Program-made: the position numbers and the translations under genes
The notes under the pieces: model-generated
Database searches by the model: none
What the model was told of the DNA's origin: nothing
Seen by the model: only the letters and a program-made list of their open reading frames with translations
Part shown: piece after piece, positions 1-14,407 of the stretch
How positions within the stretch are numbered: position 1 is the stretch's first letter
How the letters are laid out: each line of letters starts with the position of its first letter
DNA from: Flammula alnicola
Taxonomy: Eukaryota; Basidiomycota; Agaricomycetes; Agaricales; Strophariaceae
Direction of reading: 5' to 3'
Assembly (NCBI GenBank): GCA_015499995.1
Contig: JADNRV010000027.1
Coordinates: forward strand, 124,001 to 188,000
DNA: 64,000 bases

Positions 1-700
1 AGTGGAGAAATCTCTGAAGCTTCATTTTAGTGCAAAAAACATAATCTTAAGCTGAAATTTCAGCTTCATTTGCATAGGCGATTCTGAACAGAAAGGTAGG
101 CTGAGTTTCTAGCATATTCTCGCACTCCGCACGGTTACTTGCTGGACTACATATAAACAGTACTATAAGAATGCGTCCCAGTACCTGAAAACTATTGACA
201 ATTCCAAATTTTTAGTGAAGCTCTGGTTTACTCAAAAAATCAGGATCTTAGGCTGAACTTTGGACTTTGCCAGTGACTCTGAAAGGAAAGGTAAGCATGC
301 AGATTGGGATGACGCATGTACTATGCTTCGATGACAGCCTGCGTTGTGAATCGGGACTGGTAGAACGACTATAGAATCGCACTCACATTTGCATCGGAAG
401 CCGCTCGGCAAAAGAAGTGGAGCACTGAATGCCTTACATAAGCGGATGCTGATGCCAAACATATAAACAGCACAAGAATGCGCCCCTGCACCTGAAAGCT
501 CTGCACGATCTCAAATTCTTGGCTGCAGCAGGATGAAGAAACCTCCGAAGCTCCCTTTTAGTGCCAAAAAACTCGGCTTAAGCCGAAATTTGGGCCTCGC
601 AAGCCATTCTGACACGATGGGTAAGCGTGAGAAAATTAGCGTCTTTATAGATACTAGCGCGTTCCCGTGCTTCGCACGGGTACTTGCAGAATCAGAGTGA
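1..700. repeat. Diverged direct repeats (about three units)
   Basis: Three related segments begin near 1, 209 and 532. Each carries a version of a CTCTGAAGCTTCATTTTAGT-like stretch followed by a CTTAAGCTGAAATTT-like stretch. The first two also share a TATAAACAG block followed by AGAATGCG (about 155 and 463). Divergence is high, so these are old copies. The third unit ends in a hairpin and CTAG described separately. No coding frame is supported here. Confidence 0.5.
654..680 (-). mobile_element. Helitron-type 3' terminus (hairpin plus CTAG)
   Basis: Read on the minus strand, a perfect 7-bp stem (CCCGTGC / GCACGGG with a GAA loop) is followed six bases later by CTAG and then a T. This is the known layout of a Helitron 3' end: short hairpin, about ten bases, CTRR, insertion before T. 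The same stem occurs in the opposite orientation at 41,771-41,785. The helicase gene at 7.0-11.3 kb is also on the minus strand, so this could be the far 3' end of that element, with the tandem repeat and the DDE element nested inside, or the end of an unrelated non-autonomous copy. Confidence 0.4.
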
Positions 701-832
701 TCGATATCATTGGATATGCATATAATGATTAATAATAATAATGCAATGGTTTTGCCACAAAATCACGTGTGGCAAAAGCATTGTTTTTTTTTTTCTTATC
801 GGGAATTACGGTCCATGTTACCCGTTCGTTTG
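681..832. other. Short AT-rich spacer
   Basis: AT-rich sequence with AATAATAATAATG and a T10 run near 783. Nothing else recognisable. Confidence 0.4.
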
Positions 833-937
833 CAGAGCTTTTGTTGATTCTTGTTTATTGAGAATACTAACATAGTGATGTGCGCTCTCTGAACTTCAAA
901 AATGGGGAAATTGCATACCCCTCTGCTATTCAAGATA
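833..937 (+). repeat. Left partial unit of the 202-bp tandem repeat
   Basis: This stretch matches the 3' half of the units at 5295-5867 (GAGCTTTTGTTGAT, then GTGATGTGCGCTCTCTG, then TTGCATACCCCTCTGCTATT). It ends exactly at the TA where the DDE element is inserted, and the next unit resumes right after the element. Confidence 0.85.
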
Positions 938-963
938 CTGTACCATTTTAATTAGTTCGGCCG
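938..963 (+). repeat. Left terminal inverted repeat
   Basis: Begins CTGTACCATTTTAATTAG and matches the reverse complement of 5267-5292 at 25 of 26 positions; the one difference is G versus A in the TTAGTTC/TTAATTC segment. Confidence 0.92.
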
Positions 964-1274
964 GGGCTGTGACCTGTGACCACTTGGACGAATTTGTATC
1001 TTCGGCCAAGAGGACCGTGACATGGGACAAGAGGCAAAATTCGGCCAAGGTAAAATTCGGCCAGCCGTCCGTAGACAAAAAGAGTTTAGCGCTGCAAGGC
1101 ACCTCTCAAGTAGCGAGCCTCGCATCTCCTCAAACAATTTGAAATACTTAAATCCATTAGCCACAATTTATCAAAAAATGATATTGGGGAATTTAGGGAG
1201 AGAAAATTTGGCCTTTGTACACGCAAGCTTCATCCCTCCTCAACGTTCCAACAGGCGCACATTGTGTCTACGCC

Positions 1275-4200
1275 ATGAGACCAGTTAGATTCCCCCCCGA
1301 GATACAGCAACACTTACCCCCGAACACGTTGTCGGTCCGCGAATTCATTGCCGTGGATTTGCCTGGATGGGCGCCCGCAACCACAACTCGACTCATGCAA
1401 GCCTCGGAGATGCCGCCAACCACAGATGATATTGAGGAGATAGCATCTCTTCTTTCACCGCCCGATGATATCCTCTCAACTCTCCAACAGTCCATCCACA
1501 CTGGGCTTGTCAAATCAATCCAATGCCCCCATCCCACGACAGCAGGTGGGCGGAGATACCCCCTGTGGCTCGTCTCATTCTGGGTCCACCTTTCATCCAT
1601 GCGCAAACTTCAGGAGAACTGGAAAACAGCGGTTGAGAACCTCAAAGGGCAGATAGTCCAAGATAAAGAGAGCGTACCACTTCGACAAGCATTCAATGCC
1701 CTCTTGCACATCCCATGGACTGGCCGACTGCAAGGCTTGCGTGACACTATCAACCTGCATCAGCTCTCCGTTTACTTCACAAAAGAGTGGCTTACTGATG
1801 ACCACGAACTCATCATGCTCAACATCTTGAATGATGATCTTCTCGCCGCCGGAAAAGAGGATTGTTTTGTCGAGAACACCGCATTCATGTTGCTACTCGG
1901 CAATGCTTACGAAAATCGAGAGGGGTATGCGACCGAAAGATGCTATGAATGGATACATCAACGTGGGGAGGATCTTGCTATTGGGGAGAAAAGGTACCTT
2001 GCTACTATCGCAAACCAGGACAATGTTCACTGGGTTGCACTAATTGTCGACTTCGACACACAACGGCTTCTTTATGGTGATTCATATGGGCGCCCTATGT
2101 CGGCCGACCTCCGTGCTGTCATAGATTGGTGGACCGATTATCATGCAGGCGTGCAATTCACAAACCACATTCTACCGATATCAAGTCAGCAAGATAACTT
2201 CTCATGTGGGATGTTAGCGTGGGACGCACTTCGACACCATCTTGCACCCGGAAAGCCTCGCTTGATGGATCCAGATCATCTATTTGACGGTCGAGCTGAA
2301 ATATTTCTCCGACTCACTGAACACTACCACAAAGATAGAGTGAGTCAGGATCACATTACGAGCTGGAAGTGGCTTACAATTAATCTTTAGGATATTAGCA
2401 CAGATATACCAGCTGGCAGTGACCGAGACCCAGGAGCACCTGGAAACAATGCCCAGATTCACGGTGAACATGGAGAAGTAGCCGATAAAGTTGACGACTC
2501 ACTTTTCGCTTCCGATTGCGATGGAATCAATTCATGGTTTGCGAAGCCAGTCGACTCAATGAGCTCGGATTTCCACATGTCAGAATCAGACGACACAGAC
2601 TCCAATAGAGACACCCCACCACCTGAAAGTCCTGTTGAATCGGAGAAGATATCCCTGAAACGAAGCTACAGTTATGATCAGACGAGCAGCTCCTCAACGA
2701 GCCCAGAGAAGAAACCACGAACCAAGTTAACGTCATCCATCCGAGCAGCCCTGGGAAAGGATGAGCAGCCACGAGGTCTTCTTCATTTCTTCAGAAAAGC
2801 GACCGAAGAAGAGCGAAGTGAATATCTGGCCAGGATGGACGAAGAGGTGAAAGACCGGCAGGAAGATGTGGAGTTTCATTCGAAAAAGGCAAAACATGAA
2901 CAAGAGGCGAAGACAAGGGATCGGAACCGAGAGCGCAAACGTCTTCAGCGTGCGCAAATGAAGAATCTGGAAATCAAGTCAGGCCTTCGAAGTCCTGGAG
3001 GAACCAAACGCCAAGTAAGACTCACATTTTCACGCCCTAGTAATTACTAATCGTTCCTTGTCAATATCAGCGTCGCGACATGGACCTCAAACACCCTCCA
3101 AAGCTTGATCAAGGCGGCACTGTTGCTGAACTAAGCCGACCTGCTCGTGCCTTGAAGAAAAAATTTAAGGATGATACAAGAAAACCGCAAGGAAGAAAGG
3201 CGTTTCGCACCGAACAAAAACCTAAATACCACAATTGGTTTACACCATTCCTCTTCCAGCAAATCGAAAGTGCCCGAATAGTGGCAGGTGGTCCAAACTG
3301 GAGTACACGAGCTATAGAACGAGAGCTGAAGAAGCAAAATCCAAAGGTCTTTGAGAAGTTCAGTCGTACAACTCTTGACGAGTGGATCGATCGTTCCGGC
3401 AACAAGCCAAAGTGGTCTGACAAAACACTGGCTCGTATTAAATGAGGCAATGAAGCCGGACATGCTAATGCTGGCCGAAAGGGTGTACTTGTAAGCTTGT
3501 TCATTATAAATTATGATTCAACAACTAATTACATACCAGTCAAACCACCCAGAGGTCGTCGATACAGTGAAGCACCTTCTAACTGGTATTTGAGGGACAG
3601 GCGCAAGTGTCTCGCTCATCACTGCGCGTGGTGTCATGCTGGCAACCATTCTCAATAGTGCCCCGGTGATCCTGACAAAGAAATTTGTTGATGGTTCGAC
3701 CTTTCGAGCATCCGACTCATTCATGCGACATTGGCTCCATGAAACCATGCAGTGGTCACAACGGAAAGCAACCCAGGCAGCCCAGAAAAAACCTCTAGAC
3801 TGGGAGGATCAATGCGAGAAATCCTTCTTTCGAAAAGCGTACCTCATTAAAGAAGAAGACATCCCAGCCATACTATATGTGAATTCCGACCAAACACAGG
3901 TTGTCTATGCCCCTGGAGACAAGATGACATGGGCAGAGACGGGATCCAAGCAGGTACCCCTTCTTGGAGGAGAAGAGAAGCGCGCTTTTACCGTTCTCGT
4001 GTCCGTCGCGTCTAACGGGACCGTTCTGCCAATGCAAGCTATTTACTCTGGCAAAACAAATCGCTCTCGGCCCTCGCCAACAGCTCCAAACTATGAAGAT
4101 CTCATCAATGAAGGGTTTTTGCTTCAGGAATCGGGAACAGGAACGTACTGGTCGAACATTGAGACTATGAAAGACTTCGTAAACAACATTCTTGCACCCT

Positions 4201-5100
4201 ACTTCGACAAAGGCAAGCTTGACCTCAACCTCCCTGCTTCACAAAAATCCCTCTGGTCAATTGACGTCTGGACAGTCCATCGATCAAAAGAATTTCGCGC
4301 GTGGGTCAGAAAAACGCACCCAACAATAATCCTTGACTTCATTCCCGGCGGGTGCACCAGTGTCGCTCAACCTTGTGATGTTGGTATACAGAGGCCTTTC
4401 AAGCTCTCAGTCAAGCGGTCCTACCACGAGGACGTCGTTTCAGAGGTTATGGACCAGCTGAAGTCAGGAGCGAGTGTCGTGCATGTTGATACTCGGTTGC
4501 CAGTCATGAGAGACCGAAGTACACGGTGGATATGGAATGCGTATCAATCGATTAATAAGGAAGCTTTGGTGAAGAAGGTCAGTAATCGCTTTTTATCGAG
4601 ACAAATATTTCTTCTCACCATTGCTACAGGCCTTCGAGAACTGCGTTGTGCGGGATTGGAATCTCTCATATGATTGCTTGACTGGAGTCGCGGCAAGGTC
4701 AAAGTTACGAAACCTCCGAGAAACGGACCCAGCTTTTTGGGAAGAACTCACTTCGAAGGAGAGCGACTCAAGTCTACCCCCCGAGGACGTCCCACAACCT
4801 GAAGACGAGCATGTTGACAATCACGATGACCTTGATGACAGTGACGTTCCAGTTCGGGCGGTAATTGAAAATATAGTCAAGAAAACGGCACCAAAGGGCT
4901 ATGTGGTCGGCATGGGAGGAGGGTTTGAGGCAGAAGCAGAGGCAGAAAGGTTTGAAGACAGTGCTGCGGCTGAGATCGATGGCGTTGATGATGGAGGCGA
5001 TAAAGAACTGGGCCGTGGGAAACGCCGAAAACGGCCGAACCGCCTTTACAAGGACTTCTGGCGTCATGACTCGGATGCATCTGATGGAGAGGTTTCTTGA
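1275..5100 (+). pseudogene. Ulp1 protease-DDE transposase fusion gene, three nonsense codons
   Basis: Four exons (1275-3014, 3071-3490, 3540-4577, 4630-5100), all joined in phase 0, encode about 1,220 residues. Order: N-terminal region; Ulp1/SUMO-protease-like C48 domain, with the catalytic set visible as NVHW (His), YGDSYG (Asp), SQQDN (Gln) and FSCGM (Cys); a Ser/acidic and charged coiled-coil-like linker; a helix-turn-helix-like segment (WSTRAIERELKKQ); a DDE domain with acidic residues in NSDQT, SIDVW and PCDVG; and an acidic tail. The PCDVG segment fits pogo/DDE_1 enzymes. Three stops interrupt it: TAG at 2388 and TGA at 3443 and 3591, each one transition from CAG or CGA, and the frame continues past each. 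I use the first in-frame ATG; the frame is open upstream to about 1215. Protease and transposase in one reading frame is the odd feature. Confidence 0.82.
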
Positions 5101-5266
5101 TAGACGGTCTATTTCTTACATTTAGAGCACTTTACGTGGGTTACGGCTCATTTTTGGCGTATTTTTAAGGCTTAATTACAATTCGTTTTGTCCCGTCGGC
5201 CACTCTAGCTGTGACCTGGGACAACCGTCCAATTTCGGCCACGTCCAAAGTGCCTGTGACGCGTGA
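5101..5266. other. 3' subterminal region of the DDE element
   Basis: Non-coding. Holds TTTCGGCC, GTCGGCC and a GTGACCTGGGACAA copy that mirror motifs just inside the left end (about 960-1060). Such subterminal repeats are candidate transposase binding sites (inference). Confidence 0.55.
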
Positions 5267-5292
5267 CGGCCGAATTAATTAAAATGGTACAG
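5267..5292 (-). repeat. Right terminal inverted repeat
   Basis: Ends AATTAAAATGGTACAG, the inverted partner of 938-963, followed directly by the TA target copy. Confidence 0.92.
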
Positions 5293-5294
5293 TA

Positions 5295-5867
5295 TTTGGG
5301 AATAAGAGTTAACATGATATGTTTAATACACTGAGCATAATTTTATACAAAGTTGGTTGGTGTGGAATGTGCAATGACATGAATTAGCTTTCGGAGCTTT
5401 TGTTGATCTTTGTTTATTGAGACTACTAACAGAGTGATGTGCGCTCTCTGGACTTCAAAAATGCGGAAATTGCATACCCCTCTGCTATTCAAGATATTTG
5501 GGAATAAGAGTTATCATAATATGTTTAATACACTGAGCATAATTTTACACAAAGTTGGTTGGTGTGGAATGTGCAATGACATGAATTAGCTTTCGGAGCT
5601 TTTGTTGATCCTTGTTTATTAAGACTACTAACATAGTGATGTGCGCTCTCTGGACTTCAAAAATGCGGAAATTGCATACCCCTTTGCTGTTCAAGATATT
5701 TGGGAATAAGAGTTACCATGATATGTTTAATACACTGAGCATAATTTTATACAAAGTTGGTTGGTGTGGAATGTGCAATGACATGAATTAGCTTTTGGAG
5801 GTTTTGTTGATCTTTGGTTATTGAGATTACTAACATAGTGATGTGCGCTCTCTGGACTTTCAAAAAT
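5295..5867 (+). repeat. 202-bp tandem repeat, two full units and one partial
   Basis: TTTGGGAATAAGAGTTA recurs at 5295, 5497 and 5699, an exact 202-bp period. Units differ by scattered substitutions. The third unit breaks off after CAAAAAT at about 5867, where Helitron-related sequence begins. No reading frame is conserved between units, so this is a non-coding satellite-like array. Confidence 0.9.
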
Positions 5868-5916
5868 ACAGAATACATATAAGTAATAAGTAGCATAAAA
5901 ATATAACAACTAAAAT

Positions 5917-6969
5917 TTAGTCTTTCTTTTCATCGTCAGTAGCTGTCTCGGTAGCTGTGTCGTCAGAATTGTCATCGCGCTTCCTTTTTTTGTCTGTTAT
6001 GGAGGATGATACATTTTGTTGAGAGGTCCTTGAAGCATTGGGGTCGCCGTGAGACATAGGTGGATCATTGTAGTTCCATCGTGTCCGAGACCCTGCAGCG
6101 CGAGTAGTAGATCCTATAGAAGAAAGCATTAATGTTAATTCATAGTAATGTGATCTAGTCAACACTGATGCTCACGGTTTGGAACGATCGAGGGGTTAGT
6201 GCGATTGGAAAGATATGCAATATTAGCGACTTCGATTTCGACAGATGACATTGTTCTGTCAGTGTCGTGCTCTCGCATGATCTTATCAATGAAACCACTA
6301 AAAGCTATAGTGGATCCAACCATTACTTTGGGCTTCTTTCCCTCTCCCCATCTTTTAGATTCAATAAAAAATCCTCGGAGAGGGAAAGTGGAAGATGTAT
6401 GGGGCAAGGATACATATTGGGTGGGAGACATGTTGAATGAATGATCATCGTTATTGAAACGGGTGACCACTCCTGCAATGTCAATGTATGGACGTGTTTT
6501 ATCGTTTGCATCACCATCAATGAGGATGAGCTTTGTCTGTTGTCAATTTTTATCTCTCGAAAGAAATATTGGTGCAACTTACTTGAAGAATATCACCCAC
6601 AAAGGCATAGTCGCTGATTTCTAGATCTTCCGTTACTAAATCTTCTGAGATGGTGTCTTTCGTGATGGAAGATATCTAGATTTCTACAATGTTAATTATA
6701 TTCTTTTATAGCGGAGATAGAGGACAACATACATTAGCGACAACGAAAGCTTTTTGAAAAGCTTTCTCAGACATTTTTGGGATAGCGTTCATCATGTCAT
6801 CCGGAACGAAATAGCGGAGGAGAGCGAGAGAAGATGTTTGGCTACCTTCTGTGATATAGAAGTTCGCATCAAACACCACATTTCTGCTACCTCTTTGAGG
6901 ATCAACGGGTCGTGGAGATGCAAGGACTGCAATTGCAGAGAGTGAAATGTAGCCTGGAGAGCTGGTCAT
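5917..6969 (-). CDS. Helitron accessory protein, possibly OB-fold-like
   Basis: Multi-exon gene lying directly 3' of the helicase and on the same strand. I start at the ATG of MTSSPGY. Segments that join in frame include FDANFYI, a middle part with YIDIAGVVTRFN, a core KPKVMVGSTIAFSGFI, and a charged tail rich in K, R, D and T (KKRKRDDNSDD) ending DEKKD. The last intron splices AAC C to GA TCT. The alternating beta-strand pattern with a charged tail is compatible with a single-stranded-DNA-binding OB fold, and RPA-like genes are known in some Helitrons. That assignment is inference; I do not recognise a named family. Some exon borders around 6570-6720 were not fully worked out. Confidence 0.5.
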
Positions 6970-7038
6970 GATGGTCGACAGGAAAGAAAGACAATGAGAC
7001 AAAAACGCAATGAAATGACATCACAATTTTGATCTAAT

Positions 7039-10000
7039 CTAATCTATGAGTACTTCTGGGTAAACTACGTTTCGAGTTTTTCTCGCAAGTCCAATGGGTG
7101 TGTCCGGAAGTAATACATGAACACGTTCAGATGACATTGACCTTGACAATGCAACATAAAGCTGGCCATGACAAAACACGGGCGATATAAGGTGTATGCC
7201 AATACATTTGAGAGATTGACCTTGTGCTTTGTTGATCGTCATTGCAAAAGAGAGCCGCACAGGAAATTGTCGACGCTTGAGAATGAATGGATATTGCTGA
7301 GAAGTCGGTTTTAATGTGATGCGAGGAATGAAGGCTTTCTCGCCATGGTGATCGCCTCCAATAATTAAAACTTCCAGAATGCGGTGGTAAGGTCGTAAAA
7401 GGATCATGCGAGTCCCATTACATAAGCCTTGGCTGGGGTCCAAATTTCGTAGAAGCATGAGAGGACATCCGATTTTCATCTTCAACTCTGATAACGGTAG
7501 TGAGGAAGGTTCAAGTGCTCGCAAGAAATCTTCAGGGATCTCGTCATCATGGCCAACAGCATTATTGACATCTCGCTCCAAACTGTCTGCGCTATGACAG
7601 ACAATTTCTTCACCTGGCATTTGTGCAAGGATTTGTCATTTGTTTGTCGCACATCAATGTTTCTGGGAGCCAAAATGGCATGGTCGAGAAAATAGTCGGG
7701 CGGTGGAGCAGTAGGCATATTGTGAATGTCTCCATAAACATTACTGATCAAGTCATCTTCGTTATAGGTTACTATTGACGGAGGGATTTCAATGTTGCCA
7801 TCGTCGTCAATGTTACGTCCATGTCCGATATCGAGCAACCATTGCGAAAACAGGGGCGTCTTTGGGTGAGTGTCGAAGCCGCATATTATCTCGTAATTTC
7901 AAGATTTCCATGTCGTTCCATAGGTATGAATGTTGAAGGCAAGCATCAACGATGTCCGCGCGAGATCCATGGGGCACAACAGGTAGAATTTGTTGAAAAT
8001 CCCCACCGAAGACGACTGTAAGACCTCCAAATCGTGATGGACAGTCTCGAAGGTCTTGAAAGGTGCGATCTAGAGCTTCGAAGCAATGTCGATGACTCAT
8101 TAAACATTCGTCGTAGATGATAGCGTGTGCGGCACGCAAGAGATCTGCTCGAAGACTCTCTTTAGGAATGTTACACACAGAATCAATATCGAGAGAATCG
8201 ATAGGAATCTTGAACATTGAATGCGCCGTTTGTCCTCCTGGGAGAAGAAGACATGCTAGTCCTGTCGACGCAACGCAAAGAATGATAAGACCTTTAGCTC
8301 GAATAGCATGGCAGATTGTTTTGTACAGGTATGTTTTTCCTGTGCCACCTGCGCCATCAAGAAAGAAGATTTTTCCTTCATTGTTGCTGATGGAGTCCCA
8401 TATGCAATCGAAAGCATGCTTTTGCTCTGCATTGAGTGAGTGAACTTGTTCGTCTGCTAAAGAATGTTCTGATTCTTGATCATAGTTTGTCTGTTGTGCT
8501 ATCAGCCGATTGTGGAGCGTGTTTGACCAGTTATGAACTGGCCGGGGCATAGAGGAGAAGTCGGATAGATTATGACCAGAGTCATGTAAGATTTCGTCAA
8601 TGAGGTGCAAGCCAAAGTCATAAATGTCGCTTGCTGAGGTTTGCGTACGTCCAAGTTGTTGCAATTTGTGTTGAAGATCATCACATATTTTGTCCTTGAA
8701 TTCAATCCACAGGTGTTTTGGATTGGCCGGAGAACAGAAAACCAAGAGAGTCGCAAACAGATGTCGCAGCTGCGATCCTGTTTGTATTTCGCTCGCATCT
8801 GCAAGACATATTCGCCACTCGCCATCATCTTCCAATAAACCGCGTTTGAGACACGCTTCCTGGAACGTTTCACAAGGGATGCCATTGATGCTTTTCAGGT
8901 CGTCGAATGATTTTGCACCCTTGACAACCATAAGAAGTGTTCGCAAATAAAATCGCTCCCCTGCAGTTGGACCGACATAATACATACGGCCGATAGCAAA
9001 ACCTTTTCGTTGTCGAGGTGACCATATTTTAGAATGTGGATTATTTTCGTCTGACTTCAAGACAAAATGTTGAGGAAATTCTTGGTAAGTCAGATTTCGA
9101 GCCATGTTTCCAACAGAACCATTGAGTCGATTGGTTTTGAAAAAGGCGATGAGAGGTGTATCGGCATTTTCCGCATATTCAACAATGTCAGTGGCATCAG
9201 AAGATGGGTCAAACACAATACGCTGGTCATGCGGTAGATGAAGCTGTAAGCGTACGACATTAGGTTGCTGATCGTGAAGTTTAAATTGGAAGATGCGCCA
9301 TGCGGCTTCGGAAGCAGAAAAATATCGACCATCGATGTACTGCTTGACTTCGTCATGACTGTCGTGAATTGTGACCGTCCCGCAATCGCCGCCCTTGTCG
9401 AGATATTTATTGATGTATTTCATAGACCCGAAACACACTGCGCATTCAACGTTTATATGACAGTCAAACCAGAGGAGACAAAAGGGATTGAACGGCACAA
9501 TCCATCGGTTGTCAAGCATGAATCCTCTGACTTTATAAGACCGTCCATCATCGGGACGCATATAGTGAGGATAACCTTCATGGTCCATGGTGGTGTGGTC
9601 TTGAAACGGTTTCGGATAACCATACATGCATTTGTTATTTCTCATGCATGGTGCATCGGGGTTAAGTTTTCCACATGGACCATGAACCATGAATTTTGCG
9701 ACCGCGGCGAAGAGACGTGGGTGGGTATCGGGATCAGGCCAACATGCCGAGATTACAGAGTCGACTGTATCGGGGGCGAGCAACTTATACTCTGGCTTTA
9801 AAAAAATGAGAAGATGCATATGCGGTAAGCCACGCTTCTGAAATTCGATGGCGTAGATGTGGGCAACGCATGGACCCAGAATCCCATCTTTCAATATGGC
9901 ATTCAACAGCGCTTTCTTCTTTAACTGGAATACTCGTGACACCAAGTCTGGTCGATCTGCCGCGGTTTGACCAGGAAGTAATTCACGAATAATCTCGGGC

Positions 10001-11342
10001 CAATTGGGATTGGCTGTCATAGTTAGAAAGATATCAATCTTCTTGAAAAAGCGTGCGATTGCCATTCCATCCAGATAGTGCTGATGCATCTCTCGAGGTC
10101 CACCACGATATGATGAAGGCAAGATGATGCGCTGACCTAATTGCGTAAGATCAACCTGATCATCATCAATGGCAAGCGCATCTTCTAGGCCGCTGAGCAT
10201 AGTCACTCGCAATCTTGGTTGTTGAGTACGGATGAAGTGAAGGCGGTCTTGGTCAATACAGGCAAACATGTCCACCAGATATCTTTGAAAGAGACGACAT
10301 CCTCGTAAAATAGTCGAAAATTCGTGGGCTCGTCCATGGATGCGATAAGCCGTATATTGTAAAAGAGTGGTACGTCTTGAATTTCCTGAGAGATATACAG
10401 ATTAACGATGTTCAGTATCCGAAAGAAAGAGAAATTTACCTGGTAGACAGAGACCTTGATACCAACCAGGTTCACCATATGGAAAGAATAAAACATAATG
10501 GAGAGGAGCATATGCCGCATGTCCTTCATTGATACGATGAAGGCGTAGATGATCGCGATCATCGTTTTGGTTATGATAATATTGCGGGCGGAGATAGAGC
10601 AAGATGTCTCGGTAGTCACCTTGAAAAGTGTTTTCCCCAGGTAAAATGACGCCAACTTCATCGGCAGTGGGCAAGTTGTAACGTCGAGGATCATTGCCAG
10701 GCAGTACACAGAGTCTGATAGAAAAGTCCGGAGCGTCATGTTGATCGAGAACTTCATAGGCATGTTGATAGATCGGGTGTATGCGTTATATGTCTGCATG
10801 ACTTGTTGCAAAATGCGCATTGTGTTCAGTGAAAGATTGCCATTGCGAGAAATCCGGTATTTGTATGCCGCTTCTGGGTCATAAATATAAAGTTGAGCAT
10901 AGCTCGCTGCGACAGATGGCTCAGGTAAGAGAGAGCCTGACAAATGTTTCAATTCTCCATGGATTCGAAAGACTGGTGGACCACGACCAATAAGAGAATG
11001 GTCTATGTTGACTCCCATAGACGTGAATGCTAATGCGGAATTATATTGAACCATATTGGTTCGAAATTCACGCGCAGCATGTGTGTCATCGACAAATAGG
11101 TTGTACAGCACCAATGGCGGCATACGAAGACGGGGTAGCATCACTTTGCCATGCGCGCAACACATTTCAAACTGTGGACGGGTCATGCTTGACGATGAAA
11201 CACGCTCATCCAACCAGTGAAAAGCATGACAAAACAGACACTCTACGTTCATATTCCCTATGTTGTTGGTAGGCAAATTGTCGAGAACAGGACGACGTGC
11301 AACACAAAAAAGAGGTTTTTGCACTGTAGAATAGTTAATCAA
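7039..11342 (-). pseudogene. Helitron Rep-Pif1 helicase, frameshifted
   Basis: Encodes the Helitron protein: a cysteine-bearing N-terminal part (CCAHGKV, NMVQYNSALAF), the conserved LPTADEVGVILPG block, the HUH Rep domain (HUH motif in GLPHMHLLI, tyrosine motif in YINKYLDK), and a Pif1 helicase with Walker A GAGGTGKT, Walker B IIYDEC, GGDFQQILPVV, INKAQGQSL and the final YVALSRS. An apparent break near 10,280 is resolved by an intron (GTAAATTT to CTCTCAG, about 10,388-10,441) that restores QYTAYRIHGR. Three sites do look broken, each by one missing base: near 10,790, 7,843 and 7,633 (the last within an A run). The family normally has one continuous protein, so this copy is probably inactive or its sequence has small errors. 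Confidence 0.85.
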
Positions 11343-12462: not shown

Positions 12463-14407
12463 CTAGGCATCATGTCGCACGCTGCCGAAGGGGTCCCGTC
12501 GTGGAAACGTAGCGGTCGATGAAGAATCTCCTTGCATAATAACAGCTGCTCTATCCCACTGCTTCCACGGTTCATGGCCTTCAACGATGCGCGCCCGCAC
12601 TACCCTGAATAACCATTCCTCGAGCCAGTCGAGGAAGTGCATGATGTATATCACGAGGGCCGAACGGATCGTCTTCTCTTCATCTAGATAATGTACAGCA
12701 GGCACCGAAAGACTGAGCGAGCTTGGTAATCCCTGACATCGCAAGCGTTGGAGCCACTGCGTGTTGGTAAATTTGGTTTTCGAGGTGGAGGTGGTAGAGA
12801 ACACGTCGAGGAAGAGATCCTTCGAGGACGTTTGGAATATATGTTCCGTGTCGCATGCCAAAAGTAAGGCGTGTTTCGCGGATGGGGTGAGAAAGAGGAT
12901 CATGAAAAACCGTGAAGAGAGGTAGGATACGGTGAGACGGGATGTCGTGGGTCGGACAGGCAAGAAGGTTTGACGCAGGGCGCTCGGATCGGCGGGTACA
13001 AGTGTAACCTCGATGTCCGTTTCTTGACATCGTCGTCTCAGAAATGATTCGACGCGATGGCGGGCGAAGCGCTCGAGCAGCCCCTCGTCCAACCATCTGA
13101 CGCCCCCTGCAGGCGCATGCACTGGCTTTCCATCTGGGCTCCAGTTGTTCGCAGCGGGCATTGGCTCCGGACGCAGGTACACGTCCAACCGCTTTTTGTA
13201 GTGCAGTATCCAAGCAACGAACAGGATGCGTGGGAGGCTGAGGAATAAGGCAAAGGGAGCCTGTGCGAGGGCAAGAAGTAATGAAAGCGTCGTCAAAGGC
13301 GCCGCATGCGTTGGTCGAAGAAGGGCGGTCAGCTTTAGCAGCCCTCTCTTAGCGGGGTCTTCCTCTGATGCGGTGTATAGGTGTACGCGCACAGATGGCT
13401 TTGGAGGGACTGGAAACTTGTTGTTCAAGATATCGCTGGGCATGGGTGGGTGGCTTGGAGATTTGATCGAGACGGTGTAGAAACCGGAACGGTCGTTGAA
13501 CGGAGAGACATGGAACTCGCGACGGAATGTCCACTGATGGTCGTACCTACGGTAGATAAGGTTGGGTGGTATAAATAATGTCAAGTAGACGAACCCGTTG
13601 GATGGAGTTTCATCTTCGTTTTGGCCCACTTCGAGGACATGGACGTGGCTCTCTCCAAAAGTATTATGAATCTGCAAAAAAAGATCACTGTTAATTTAAT
13701 CAGAGTTAATTGGAGCAAACAAGTGCGACCGAGATAATCATGCTGGGAAATGGCGAGCACAGGCTCTCGCCGCCAACTTGAGTAGCGCCTGGGACGCTTG
13801 AAGTTTAATCGATGCATAGAGGTTTGAACGCCTCCTGCGTCGTCACCATTCCCTTATTGCAAGCCTAATTGGATAGTTCTGCAAAAACCACGCACCTCTA
13901 AGACAGTCAGCCAGAACGTCCCAGTCGAATCATAGCAGAAATATACAGTCAAAGGATTGATTCCTTCGAAGCCCAGAAAGCTGGGCATTGTCATCATCCA
14001 AGCGTCTTGCAGAACATGTGTTGCGTCCAAAAATCCCCGCGTCCTGAGGATATTGTCAAGCTTACTTCTAATCGTCCCAGGTTGTTTTGTGAGATAAGGC
14101 TCTGGTCGGAGTCCAGTAATTCTCCCCAGAGTCCTCCGTAACCAAACACCCATCCTCTGCCCAAGTCCAGGGTACGTCGCTCCAAAGCGTCGAGGGATAC
14201 TAGCAACGTAAGCGTGGGATATGTGAACGCGTTCGCTGACTCTTCTGGAAGAAGTCGGGCATGGGTGACTTGATTATGAAGTAAATAGCTTTGCGCCTTC
14301 CAGCCAGCTGAAGACCGAGAGTTGTACAGAAAAGCAGAGATAGAAACGCAGAATACTGTTACACAGGCGTCGATTGCCTGCCAGGGCATCGTTAGGTTAG
14401 CAATCAA
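12463..14407 (-). pseudogene. DUF1365 family protein gene with one frameshift
   Basis: The family is recognised from YLLHNQVTHARL near the start, then FGYGG, LRPEPYL, a central FEGINPLTVYFCYD and IHNTFGESHVHVL, and PFNDRSGFYTV in the C-terminal half. A hydrophobic segment (VTVFCVSISAFL) precedes the domain and a second one (LLLALAQAPFALFLSL) follows, suggesting membrane association. The intron 13,672-13,895 (GTGCGT to TTTGCAG) joins VLE to IHNT in frame. Near 14,124-14,127 a run of four C (G on the coding strand) needs one more base to connect FGYGGLWG to RITGLRP, so the frame is broken there. DUF1365 has no established reaction; bacterial members often lie beside cyclopropane fatty acid synthase-type genes. 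It could be a live gene with a sequencing error. Confidence 0.7.

What the first reader, a model, noticed from the sequence alone, without database searches (positions are those of the whole stretch)
938..5292. Ulp1 protease fused in one reading frame to a pogo-like DDE transposase in a TA-targeting transposon
Seen: after removing three introns (all phase 0) a single frame runs from a C48/Ulp1 domain with its His, Asp, Gln and Cys in place, through a charged linker and an HTH-like segment, into a DDE domain. The element has inverted ends and a TA duplication. Known: Ulp1-like domains occur as separate or fused parts of some other DNA transposon groups, and Tc1/mariner-pogo elements use TA. I do not know a described Tc1/mariner-pogo family with an N-terminal Ulp1 protease. 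Inference: the protease may process the fusion, or remove SUMO from host or transposase, to aid transposition or avoid silencing.
Basis: partly seen in the sequence, partly recalled or inferred. Interest (0 to 1): 0.78.

Follow-up and report, generated by a model that had tools for sequence, protein, structure and literature searches.

The report
SUMO-protease fused to jumping-gene enzyme
A mushroom-type fungal genome carries a cut-and-paste jumping gene whose transposase is made as one protein with a SUMO-type protease, and related fused genes, with the protease active site kept, are present in several other mushrooms.

Summary
The core of the finding holds. Window 938-5292 is a 4,355-bp DNA transposon with 26-bp inverted ends and TA target duplications. 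Its gene joins an N-terminal Ulp1 (C48) protease exon to a Tc1/mariner/pogo-like DDD transposase. Four near-identical copies lie in the genome, each flanked by TA; two insertion sites have empty counterparts, and 23 of 24 short non-autonomous relatives read are also TA-flanked. Two corrections: there are four phase-0 introns, not three, and this copy has two in-frame TGA stops; another copy keeps the frame open.

The fusion is a lineage, not a chance join. Ten database proteins carry both domains in this order. H, D, Q and C of the protease are kept in 11 of 11 fused proteins. The domain trees largely agree. The intron at the junction sits at the same place, in phase 0, in four divergent lineages of this genome. 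Models match SENP/Ulp1 and Mos1/SETMAR.

The same protease lineage also precedes a hAT-type transposase (8-bp duplications) and a third element in this genome, with a phase-0 intron behind it in the hAT case. So the protease looks like a cassette shared between transposon superfamilies. Its target (SUMO or other) is inferred, not shown.

The parts
936..937 (.). TA target site duplication, left
   Evidence: single TA in the empty site
938..5292 (+). whole transposon, 4,355 bp
   Evidence: four copies share exactly these ends
938..963 (+). left terminal inverted repeat, 26 bp
   Evidence: 25 of 26 match to the right end
1275..2339 (+). exon 1: Ulp1 (C48) module, 355 codons, incl. an N-terminal region without a Pfam family
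   Evidence: AlphaFold pLDDT 91.2, matches SENP2/Ulp1
1785..2243 (+). Peptidase_C48 match (PF02902)
   Evidence: E 3.4e-6, above cut-off
2028..2030 (+). catalytic His codon (residue 252)
   Evidence: H in 39 of 39 rows, 11 of 11 fused proteins
2079..2081 (+). catalytic Asp codon (residue 269)
   Evidence: D in 37 of 39 rows, N in 2; 11 of 11 fused
2187..2189 (+). oxyanion-hole Gln codon (residue 305)
   Evidence: Q in 35 of 39 rows, 3 gaps, 1 P; invariant in the 11 fused
2205..2207 (+). catalytic Cys codon (residue 311)
   Evidence: C in 36 of 39 rows, 3 gaps; 11 of 11 fused
2340..2390 (+). intron 1 (51 bp, phase 0, in-frame TAG inside): the Ulp1/transposase junction
   Evidence: same place and phase in three other lineages with unlike sequence and length
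2391..3014 (+). exon 2: acidic then basic charged linker
3015..3070 (+). intron 2 (56 bp, phase 0)
   Evidence: absent in relative L037, whose frame runs through
3071..3490 (+). exon 3: predicted helical, HTH-like segment
   Evidence: (HTH_32 E 0.15, below cut-off)
3443..3445 (+). in-frame TGA stop of this copy
3491..3539 (+). intron 3 (49 bp, phase 0)
   Evidence: absent in L037
3540..4577 (+). exon 4: rest of DNA-binding region and DDD catalytic domain
   Evidence: PF03184 E 7e-8; Mos1/SETMAR fold for relative P0012
3591..3593 (+). in-frame TGA stop of this copy
3888..3890 (+). first catalytic Asp (D820)
   Evidence: 11 of 11
4263..4265 (+). second catalytic Asp (D945)
   Evidence: 10 of 11 (N in P0004, whose model lacks the stretch behind it)
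4377..4379 (+). third catalytic Asp (D983), 37 residues after the second (DD37D)
   Evidence: 10 of 11, gap in P0004; spacing 37 in 38 of 38 rows of A5
4578..4629 (+). intron 4 (52 bp, phase 0)
4630..5100 (+). exon 5: acidic C-terminal tail and stop
5267..5292 (-). right terminal inverted repeat, 26 bp
5293..5294 (.). TA target site duplication, right

Best explanation
It is a recently active cut-and-paste DNA transposon of the IS630-Tc1-mariner group (pogo-like DDD transposase, TA target). Its single gene makes a bifunctional protein of about 1,205 residues: a CE-clan Ulp1-type isopeptidase at the N terminus, a charged linker, a DNA-binding region and the DDD transposase. Shown: ends, TA duplication, copies, empty sites, both domains with catalytic residues kept, the fusion in relatives, co-inheritance of the domains. 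Inferred: the protease is an active deSUMOylase (or remover of another ubiquitin-like protein) that the transposase carries to the element's ends and target chromatin, where it strips SUMO from silencing or repair factors, or from the transposase itself, and so helps the element move or escape silencing. Inferred too: retaining intron 1, which has an in-frame stop, would release a stand-alone protease.
Against: No RNA reads: splicing is inferred. The window copy itself is interrupted by two stops. Of 27 held database proteins of 600 aa or more with the transposase domain, 13 have and 14 lack an Ulp1 match; 10 of those 14 keep the fusion family's linker (E 1.3e-5 or better) and may be gene calls that start behind intron 1, but true loss of the protease is not excluded; most other transposase hits are shorter pieces that say nothing either way. 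In four of the 13 (P0010, P0028, P0041, P0050) the Ulp1 match is partial or weak. In the exon-1 alignment 3 of 39 rows differ at an active-site residue (P0150 P for Q; P0163 and P0168 N for D) and 3 rows, P0168 among them, lack the stretch with Gln and Cys. No activity or substrate is known. Plant MULE-borne C48 proteins are judged unlikely to act on SUMO (PMC6117577, passages). No HTH family was recognised.
Confidence: 0.6

Rival explanations
1. Self-processing polyprotein: the Ulp1 domain cuts the fusion in the linker, as viral relatives of this fold cut polyproteins, and frees the transposase.
For: A small island in an otherwise loose linker is conserved: G-x-R-x-x-x-G-x-K, its last Gly invariant in 11 of 11; 7 of 11 read RSPGG. 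That C48 enzymes cut after Gly is recalled.
Against: The residue before the invariant Gly is not kept in the other four (DSNG, DENG, SSDG, NADG). The island is very basic and may be a nuclear localisation or DNA-contact signal. Nothing tested.
Confidence: 0.2
2. The protease and transposase are two genes; the first ends at the TAG in 'intron 1', and the fused models are annotation artefacts.
For: Unspliced, exon 1 ends at the 2388-2390 TAG; retention gives a stand-alone protease in the window family, L036, L037 and hAT L042, with the stop inside the intron. 14 long transposase proteins show no Ulp1 match.
Against: GT-AG introns at the same place and phase in four lineages with different lengths and sequence; P0153 and P0174 are open across the junction; gene models from nine named fungi join the domains.
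Confidence: 0.07
3. Passenger: the Ulp1 exon is a captured host fragment carried without function, as many plant transposons carry gene fragments.
For: Transposons often capture gene pieces (recalled); the domain evolves faster than the transposase (30% against 51% mean identity).
Against: Active-site H, D, Q, C kept in 11 of 11 fused proteins at such divergence, confident model, largely congruent trees, hosts from Psilocybe to Ceratobasidium and Tulasnella.
Confidence: 0.08

Closest known systems
pogo superfamily, esp. Fot/Fot-like of fungi (PMC7386202: passages and section 8; PMC7325037: passages)
   Same: DDE_1-type DDD transposase, inverted ends of 40 bp or less as in most pogo families, TA duplication (FotC/FotD and other pogo families), fungal hosts
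   Different: N-terminal Ulp1; 1,205 aa against 300-977 aa reported; DD37D against DD35D of almost all Fot; no recognised HTH motif; 'protease' and 'peptidase' occur 0 times in either main text
Ginger1 transposons (PMC2836005, passages)
   Same: Ulp1 domain in the same protein as a DDE transposase
   Different: Ulp1 (or OTU) is C-terminal; Gypsy-integrase-like transposase
Plant MULE-ULP (Kaonashi) and CACTA-ULP (PMC2528002, PMC6117577: passages)
   Same: C48 domain carried by cut-and-paste transposons
   Different: other transposase superfamilies; in KI-MULEs the protease is in reverse orientation to the transposase
CryptonF/CryptonS with C48 peptidase (PMC3212892, passages)
   Same: C48 peptidase carried by mobile DNA and found in two element groups
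   Different: tyrosine recombinase elements of oomycetes; a Mariner-type transposase with 16-bp ends and TA is mentioned for some elements, but no Ulp1-DDE fusion in the passages seen
TET/JBP-carrying fungal DNA transposons (PMC12730594: abstract, outline, passages)
   Same: enzyme gene passed between unrelated fungal transposon superfamilies, proposed as escape from silencing
   Different: dioxygenase, not protease; 'Mariner' and 'pogo' occur 0 times in the main text

Membership tests
pogo superfamily (IS630-Tc1-mariner group) | TA (or TAA/TAAA) target duplication | tested here: met
   TA in 4 of 4 full copies, relatives L036 and L037, 23 of 24 short derivatives; no ends found for L038
pogo superfamily (IS630-Tc1-mariner group) | DDE_1 catalytic domain with DDxD triad | tested here: met
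   PF03184 above cut-off; 10 of 11 fused proteins; DD37D in 38 of 38 rows; Metnase/Mos1 fold
pogo superfamily (IS630-Tc1-mariner group) | N-terminal HTH_Tnp_Tc5, HTH_psq, CENP-B_N, HTH_ABP1_N or BrkDBD motif | tested here: inconclusive
   no Pfam HTH above cut-off; segment predicted helical; the Mover family also lacks a detectable motif per PMC7386202
pogo superfamily (IS630-Tc1-mariner group) | placement among reference pogo transposases in a tree | not tested
   no reference pogo set was at hand
Fot family | DD35D triad | tested here: not met
   37 residues between the last two Asp in 38 of 38 rows; almost all Fot/Fot-like are DD35D
Peptidase C48 (Ulp1/SENP) | His-Asp-Gln-Cys active site and fold | tested here: met
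   SENP2 and Ulp1 best fold matches; SENP1 profile hit E 1e-10
Peptidase C48 (Ulp1/SENP) | cleavage of SUMO or another ubiquitin-like protein | not testable with these tools
   needs an enzyme assay
hAT superfamily (for relatives L042, L043 only) | 8-bp target duplication | tested here: met
   2 of 2 loci in which both ends were found; no ends found for L041
hAT superfamily (for relatives L042, L043 only) | hAT-type transposase sequence | tested here: inconclusive
   DUF659 E 1.5e-6 but 28.4 bits, below the 34.7 cut-off; DUF659 as a hAT-associated domain is recalled

The most novel reading that the evidence does not exclude
One transposon-borne Ulp1 lineage travels as a single exon with a phase-0 intron behind it between transposase superfamilies of mushroom fungi (pogo-like, hAT-like, and a third element) as a mobile counter-silencing cassette that removes SUMO at the site of transposition, with intron retention as a switch between fused and free protease.
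Probability: 0.3. Interest if true: 0.82.

Novelty: new variant of a known kind. Interest (0 to 1): 0.62.

Why it matters
Ulp1-type proteases turn up in several unrelated transposons, but whether they help transposition has stayed open. A family in which the protease is physically part of a simple, TA-targeting Tc1/mariner-type transposase, with a copy whose frame is open and abundant short derivatives as ready substrates, makes the question directly testable in yeast. If the same protease exon really moves between transposon superfamilies, it joins TET/JBP as a second shared accessory enzyme of fungal transposons and points to SUMO as a front line between fungi and their mobile DNA.

Tried and rejected
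Rejected: one-off chimera or assembly artefact (four lineages in this genome plus ten database proteins); two separate genes (conserved junction intron; frames open across it); recent capture of a host Ulp1 of this genome: with the transposon Ulp1 profile, host-like C48 loci score 20-23 bits as single exon pieces (one further piece 16.6) and 27-38 as roughly stitched pieces, against 129 for the hAT-borne module and 80-81 for the third element's. One pogo-borne member, P0041, also scores only 81.

Led nowhere: joined-flank searches for empty sites of the C46 and C412 copies; Pfam, PDB and NCBIfam searches for the third element's 643-aa frame; PDB sequence search with the DDE profile (none). The Ulp1 tree (30 rows) groups hAT and third element (97/86) and host (100/100, branch 4.1), but the program warns that the third element's long branch makes its place unsure, and where the host rows attach is unresolved (51/0); the direction of transfer is unknown. 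The P-element look of the third element's protein is a guess by eye. The fold listing bears on the catalytic domain; the DNA-binding part is barely tested.

Rows dropped: P0010 from the domain comparison (partial Ulp1); P0007 and P0009 in its control; P0028 from the Ulp1 tree (partial). 38 of 47 Ulp1 hits were aligned with the window exon. One search lists 120 of 332 DDE hits; 37 of those were aligned to P0012. Both searches with the transposase in the query scored only the about 8,000 candidates sharing most words. The Q row printed is the neighbouring residue 306, which varies; the Gln meant is residue 305. Three of 27 short derivatives were not read.
Full report
WHAT IS THERE. The window is G000:C190:124001-188000 of an unnamed 74.4-Mb eukaryotic genome. 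That it is an agaric-type basidiomycete is inferred from the nearest fused proteins. At 938-5292 lies a 4,355-bp element with 26-bp inverted ends (25 of 26 matching) flanked by TA. Three more copies (C338, C46, C412) are 99.79, 99.72 and 99.56% identical to it over the full length, with the same ends and TA on both sides. The window copy's insertion site is empty on C537: joined flanks match over 200 bases at 100% with one TA. It sits at the edge of a 202-bp tandem array whose other units also show the uninterrupted site. The C338 copy has an empty counterpart on C46 at 93%; for the C46 and C412 copies none was found. Besides the full copies, one search lists 27 shorter matches; 24 were read, and 23 have both ends and TA/TA, 22 of them 240-267 bp and one 910 bp, at about 20 distinct sites because three pairs share flanks. 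So the family has mobilised both itself and short derivatives.

IS THE FUSION REAL? No RNA was available, so I tested it by comparison. (a) In the same genome three other lineages (C29; C701 with its apparent duplicate C138; C115 with C715) have Ulp1 then DDE in the same order, at 31, 32 and 45% identity in Ulp1. Each has a GT-AG intron right behind the Ulp1 domain in phase 0, with lengths 53, 50 and 50 against 51 here and unlike sequences; since three of the four lengths are not multiples of three, the downstream frame is reached only by splicing. C115/C715 are decayed (stops inside), and C29's transposase match has one stop. Relative L037 lacks introns 2 and 3 and reads straight through. (b) A search of 5.8 billion proteins with the fusion (the 7,992 candidates sharing most words were scored) gave 10 hits, from Psilocybe, Pholiota, Agrocybe, Tephrocybe, Candolleomyces, Tetrapyrgos (two), Mycena, Ceratobasidium and Tulasnella, 31-49% identical; both domains are found in all ten by our profiles. 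(c) Of 176 database proteins held after three searches, 131 have the transposase, 60 the protease and 15 both. Two of these, P0153 and P0174, are single uninterrupted frames on contigs of 1,937 and 1,648 bp that cross the junction into the first part of the transposase; P0174 seems to read through an open intron 1, P0153 to lack it; I could not read the contigs. (d) Against: of 27 transposase proteins of 600 aa or more, 14 show no Ulp1 match; 10 of the 14 carry the fusion family's linker, which fits gene calls that begin behind intron 1 but does not exclude loss. (e) The two domain trees (FastTree, 13 rows) share (P0001, L009, L038), (P0002, P0003, L037) and (P0006, P0007); they differ in the place of L036 and in the deep order of P0008 and P0009. 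Identity matrices correlate at r 0.89 (0 of 5000 permutations) and 0.66 without P0007 and P0009 (1 of 5000, 11 rows). The domains have therefore mostly travelled together.

IS THE PROTEASE LIKELY ACTIVE? H, D, Q and C are the same in 11 of 11 fused proteins. In 39 aligned exon-1 rows H is 39, D 37, Q 35 (3 gaps, 1 P), C 36 (3 gaps). The domain otherwise averages 30% identity over 13 rows, against 51% for the transposase. That pattern is what selection on an enzyme leaves, and the faster change would fit a protease in conflict with host proteins (inference).

BEYOND THE FINDING. The Ulp1 search in this genome also hit four loci without a pogo-like match. L042 and L043 are elements of 4,539 and 4,613 bp with a 19-bp inverted repeat (TAGGGTTGGG...) and different 8-bp duplications. 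Their Ulp1 exon is followed by a phase-0 intron at the same relative place (57 bp, in-frame stop) and then by exons with a DUF659 match (E 1.5e-6, below Pfam's cut-off), which I read as a hAT transposase. L041 carries the same gene, but its ends were not found. L044 is a 6,614-bp element with a 20-bp inverted repeat and a 7-bp duplication, an Ulp1-like frame (no Pfam match) and unidentified large frames. With the pogo-borne Ulp1 profile the hAT modules score 129 bits and L044 80, while host-like C48 loci score 20-23 in single pieces and 27-38 stitched. In the tree hAT and L044 group at 97/86 and host at 100/100, but L044's branch is very long and the root is unresolved. Conversely 6 of 14 DDE_1 matches in the genome lie on contigs without any of the 21 C48 matches. 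The simplest reading is one transposon-borne Ulp1 lineage shared by at least three element types; the direction is unknown.

MECHANISM. Most likely the transposase brings a deSUMOylase to the element and its target. SUMO takes part in silencing and in repair of double-strand breaks in eukaryotes (recalled), and related ideas are in print: Ulp1/OTU domains as helpers of transposition through repair factors (PMC2836005, passages) and TET/JBP enzymes as escape from silencing in fungal transposons (PMC12730594, abstract). Self-processing is the main rival: the linker has a conserved basic island with an invariant Gly (RSPGG in 7 of 11). A caution: plant MULE-borne C48 proteins are judged unlikely to act on SUMO (PMC6117577, passages).

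NOVELTY. Ulp1 in transposons is known for Ginger1, MULEs, CACTA and Cryptons. Ten searches of an open-access library listed no paper that I recognised as describing a pogo-like or Tc1/mariner transposase fused to Ulp1; Repbase and subscription papers were not searched. I therefore call it a new variant of a known kind. Pogo membership is likely but not closed: TA, short inverted ends and DDE_1 are met, the HTH motif is inconclusive, tree placement was not tested, and the Fot signature DD35D is not met.

Noticed in passing
L042 (C2:330000-339500) 2567-7105; L043 (C9:175000-184500): hAT-type elements (8-bp duplications) with the same Ulp1 lineage as first exon and a phase-0 junction intron; L041 (C6) carries the same gene.
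   Followed up: yes
L044 (C849:147000-156500), about 54-6667: 6.6-kb element with 20-bp inverted repeat and 7-bp duplication, holding an Ulp1-like frame (485 aa) and unidentified frames of 429 and 643 aa.
   Followed up: partly
window 5293-5867: 202-bp tandem repeat, 2.8 units, right beside the insertion; the array on C537 lacks the transposon and, read by eye, lies next to Helitron-helicase-like coding sequence.
   Followed up: partly
window 7816-10401 (-): Helitron gene: Helitron_like_N E 4.6e-59 and PIF1 helicase E 6.8e-72.
   Followed up: no
window 12469-13695 (-): DUF1365 match E 4.3e-24, probably an ordinary host gene.
   Followed up: no
fused family linker, window about 2970-3010: Basic conserved island G-x-R-S-P-G-G-x-K just before intron 2; last Gly invariant in 11 of 11, possible self-cleavage or DNA-contact site.
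   Followed up: partly
L005/L063, L006/L008, L070/L071: Pairs of short derivatives with identical flanks on different contigs, suggesting that the assembly holds both haplotypes in places.
   Followed up: no
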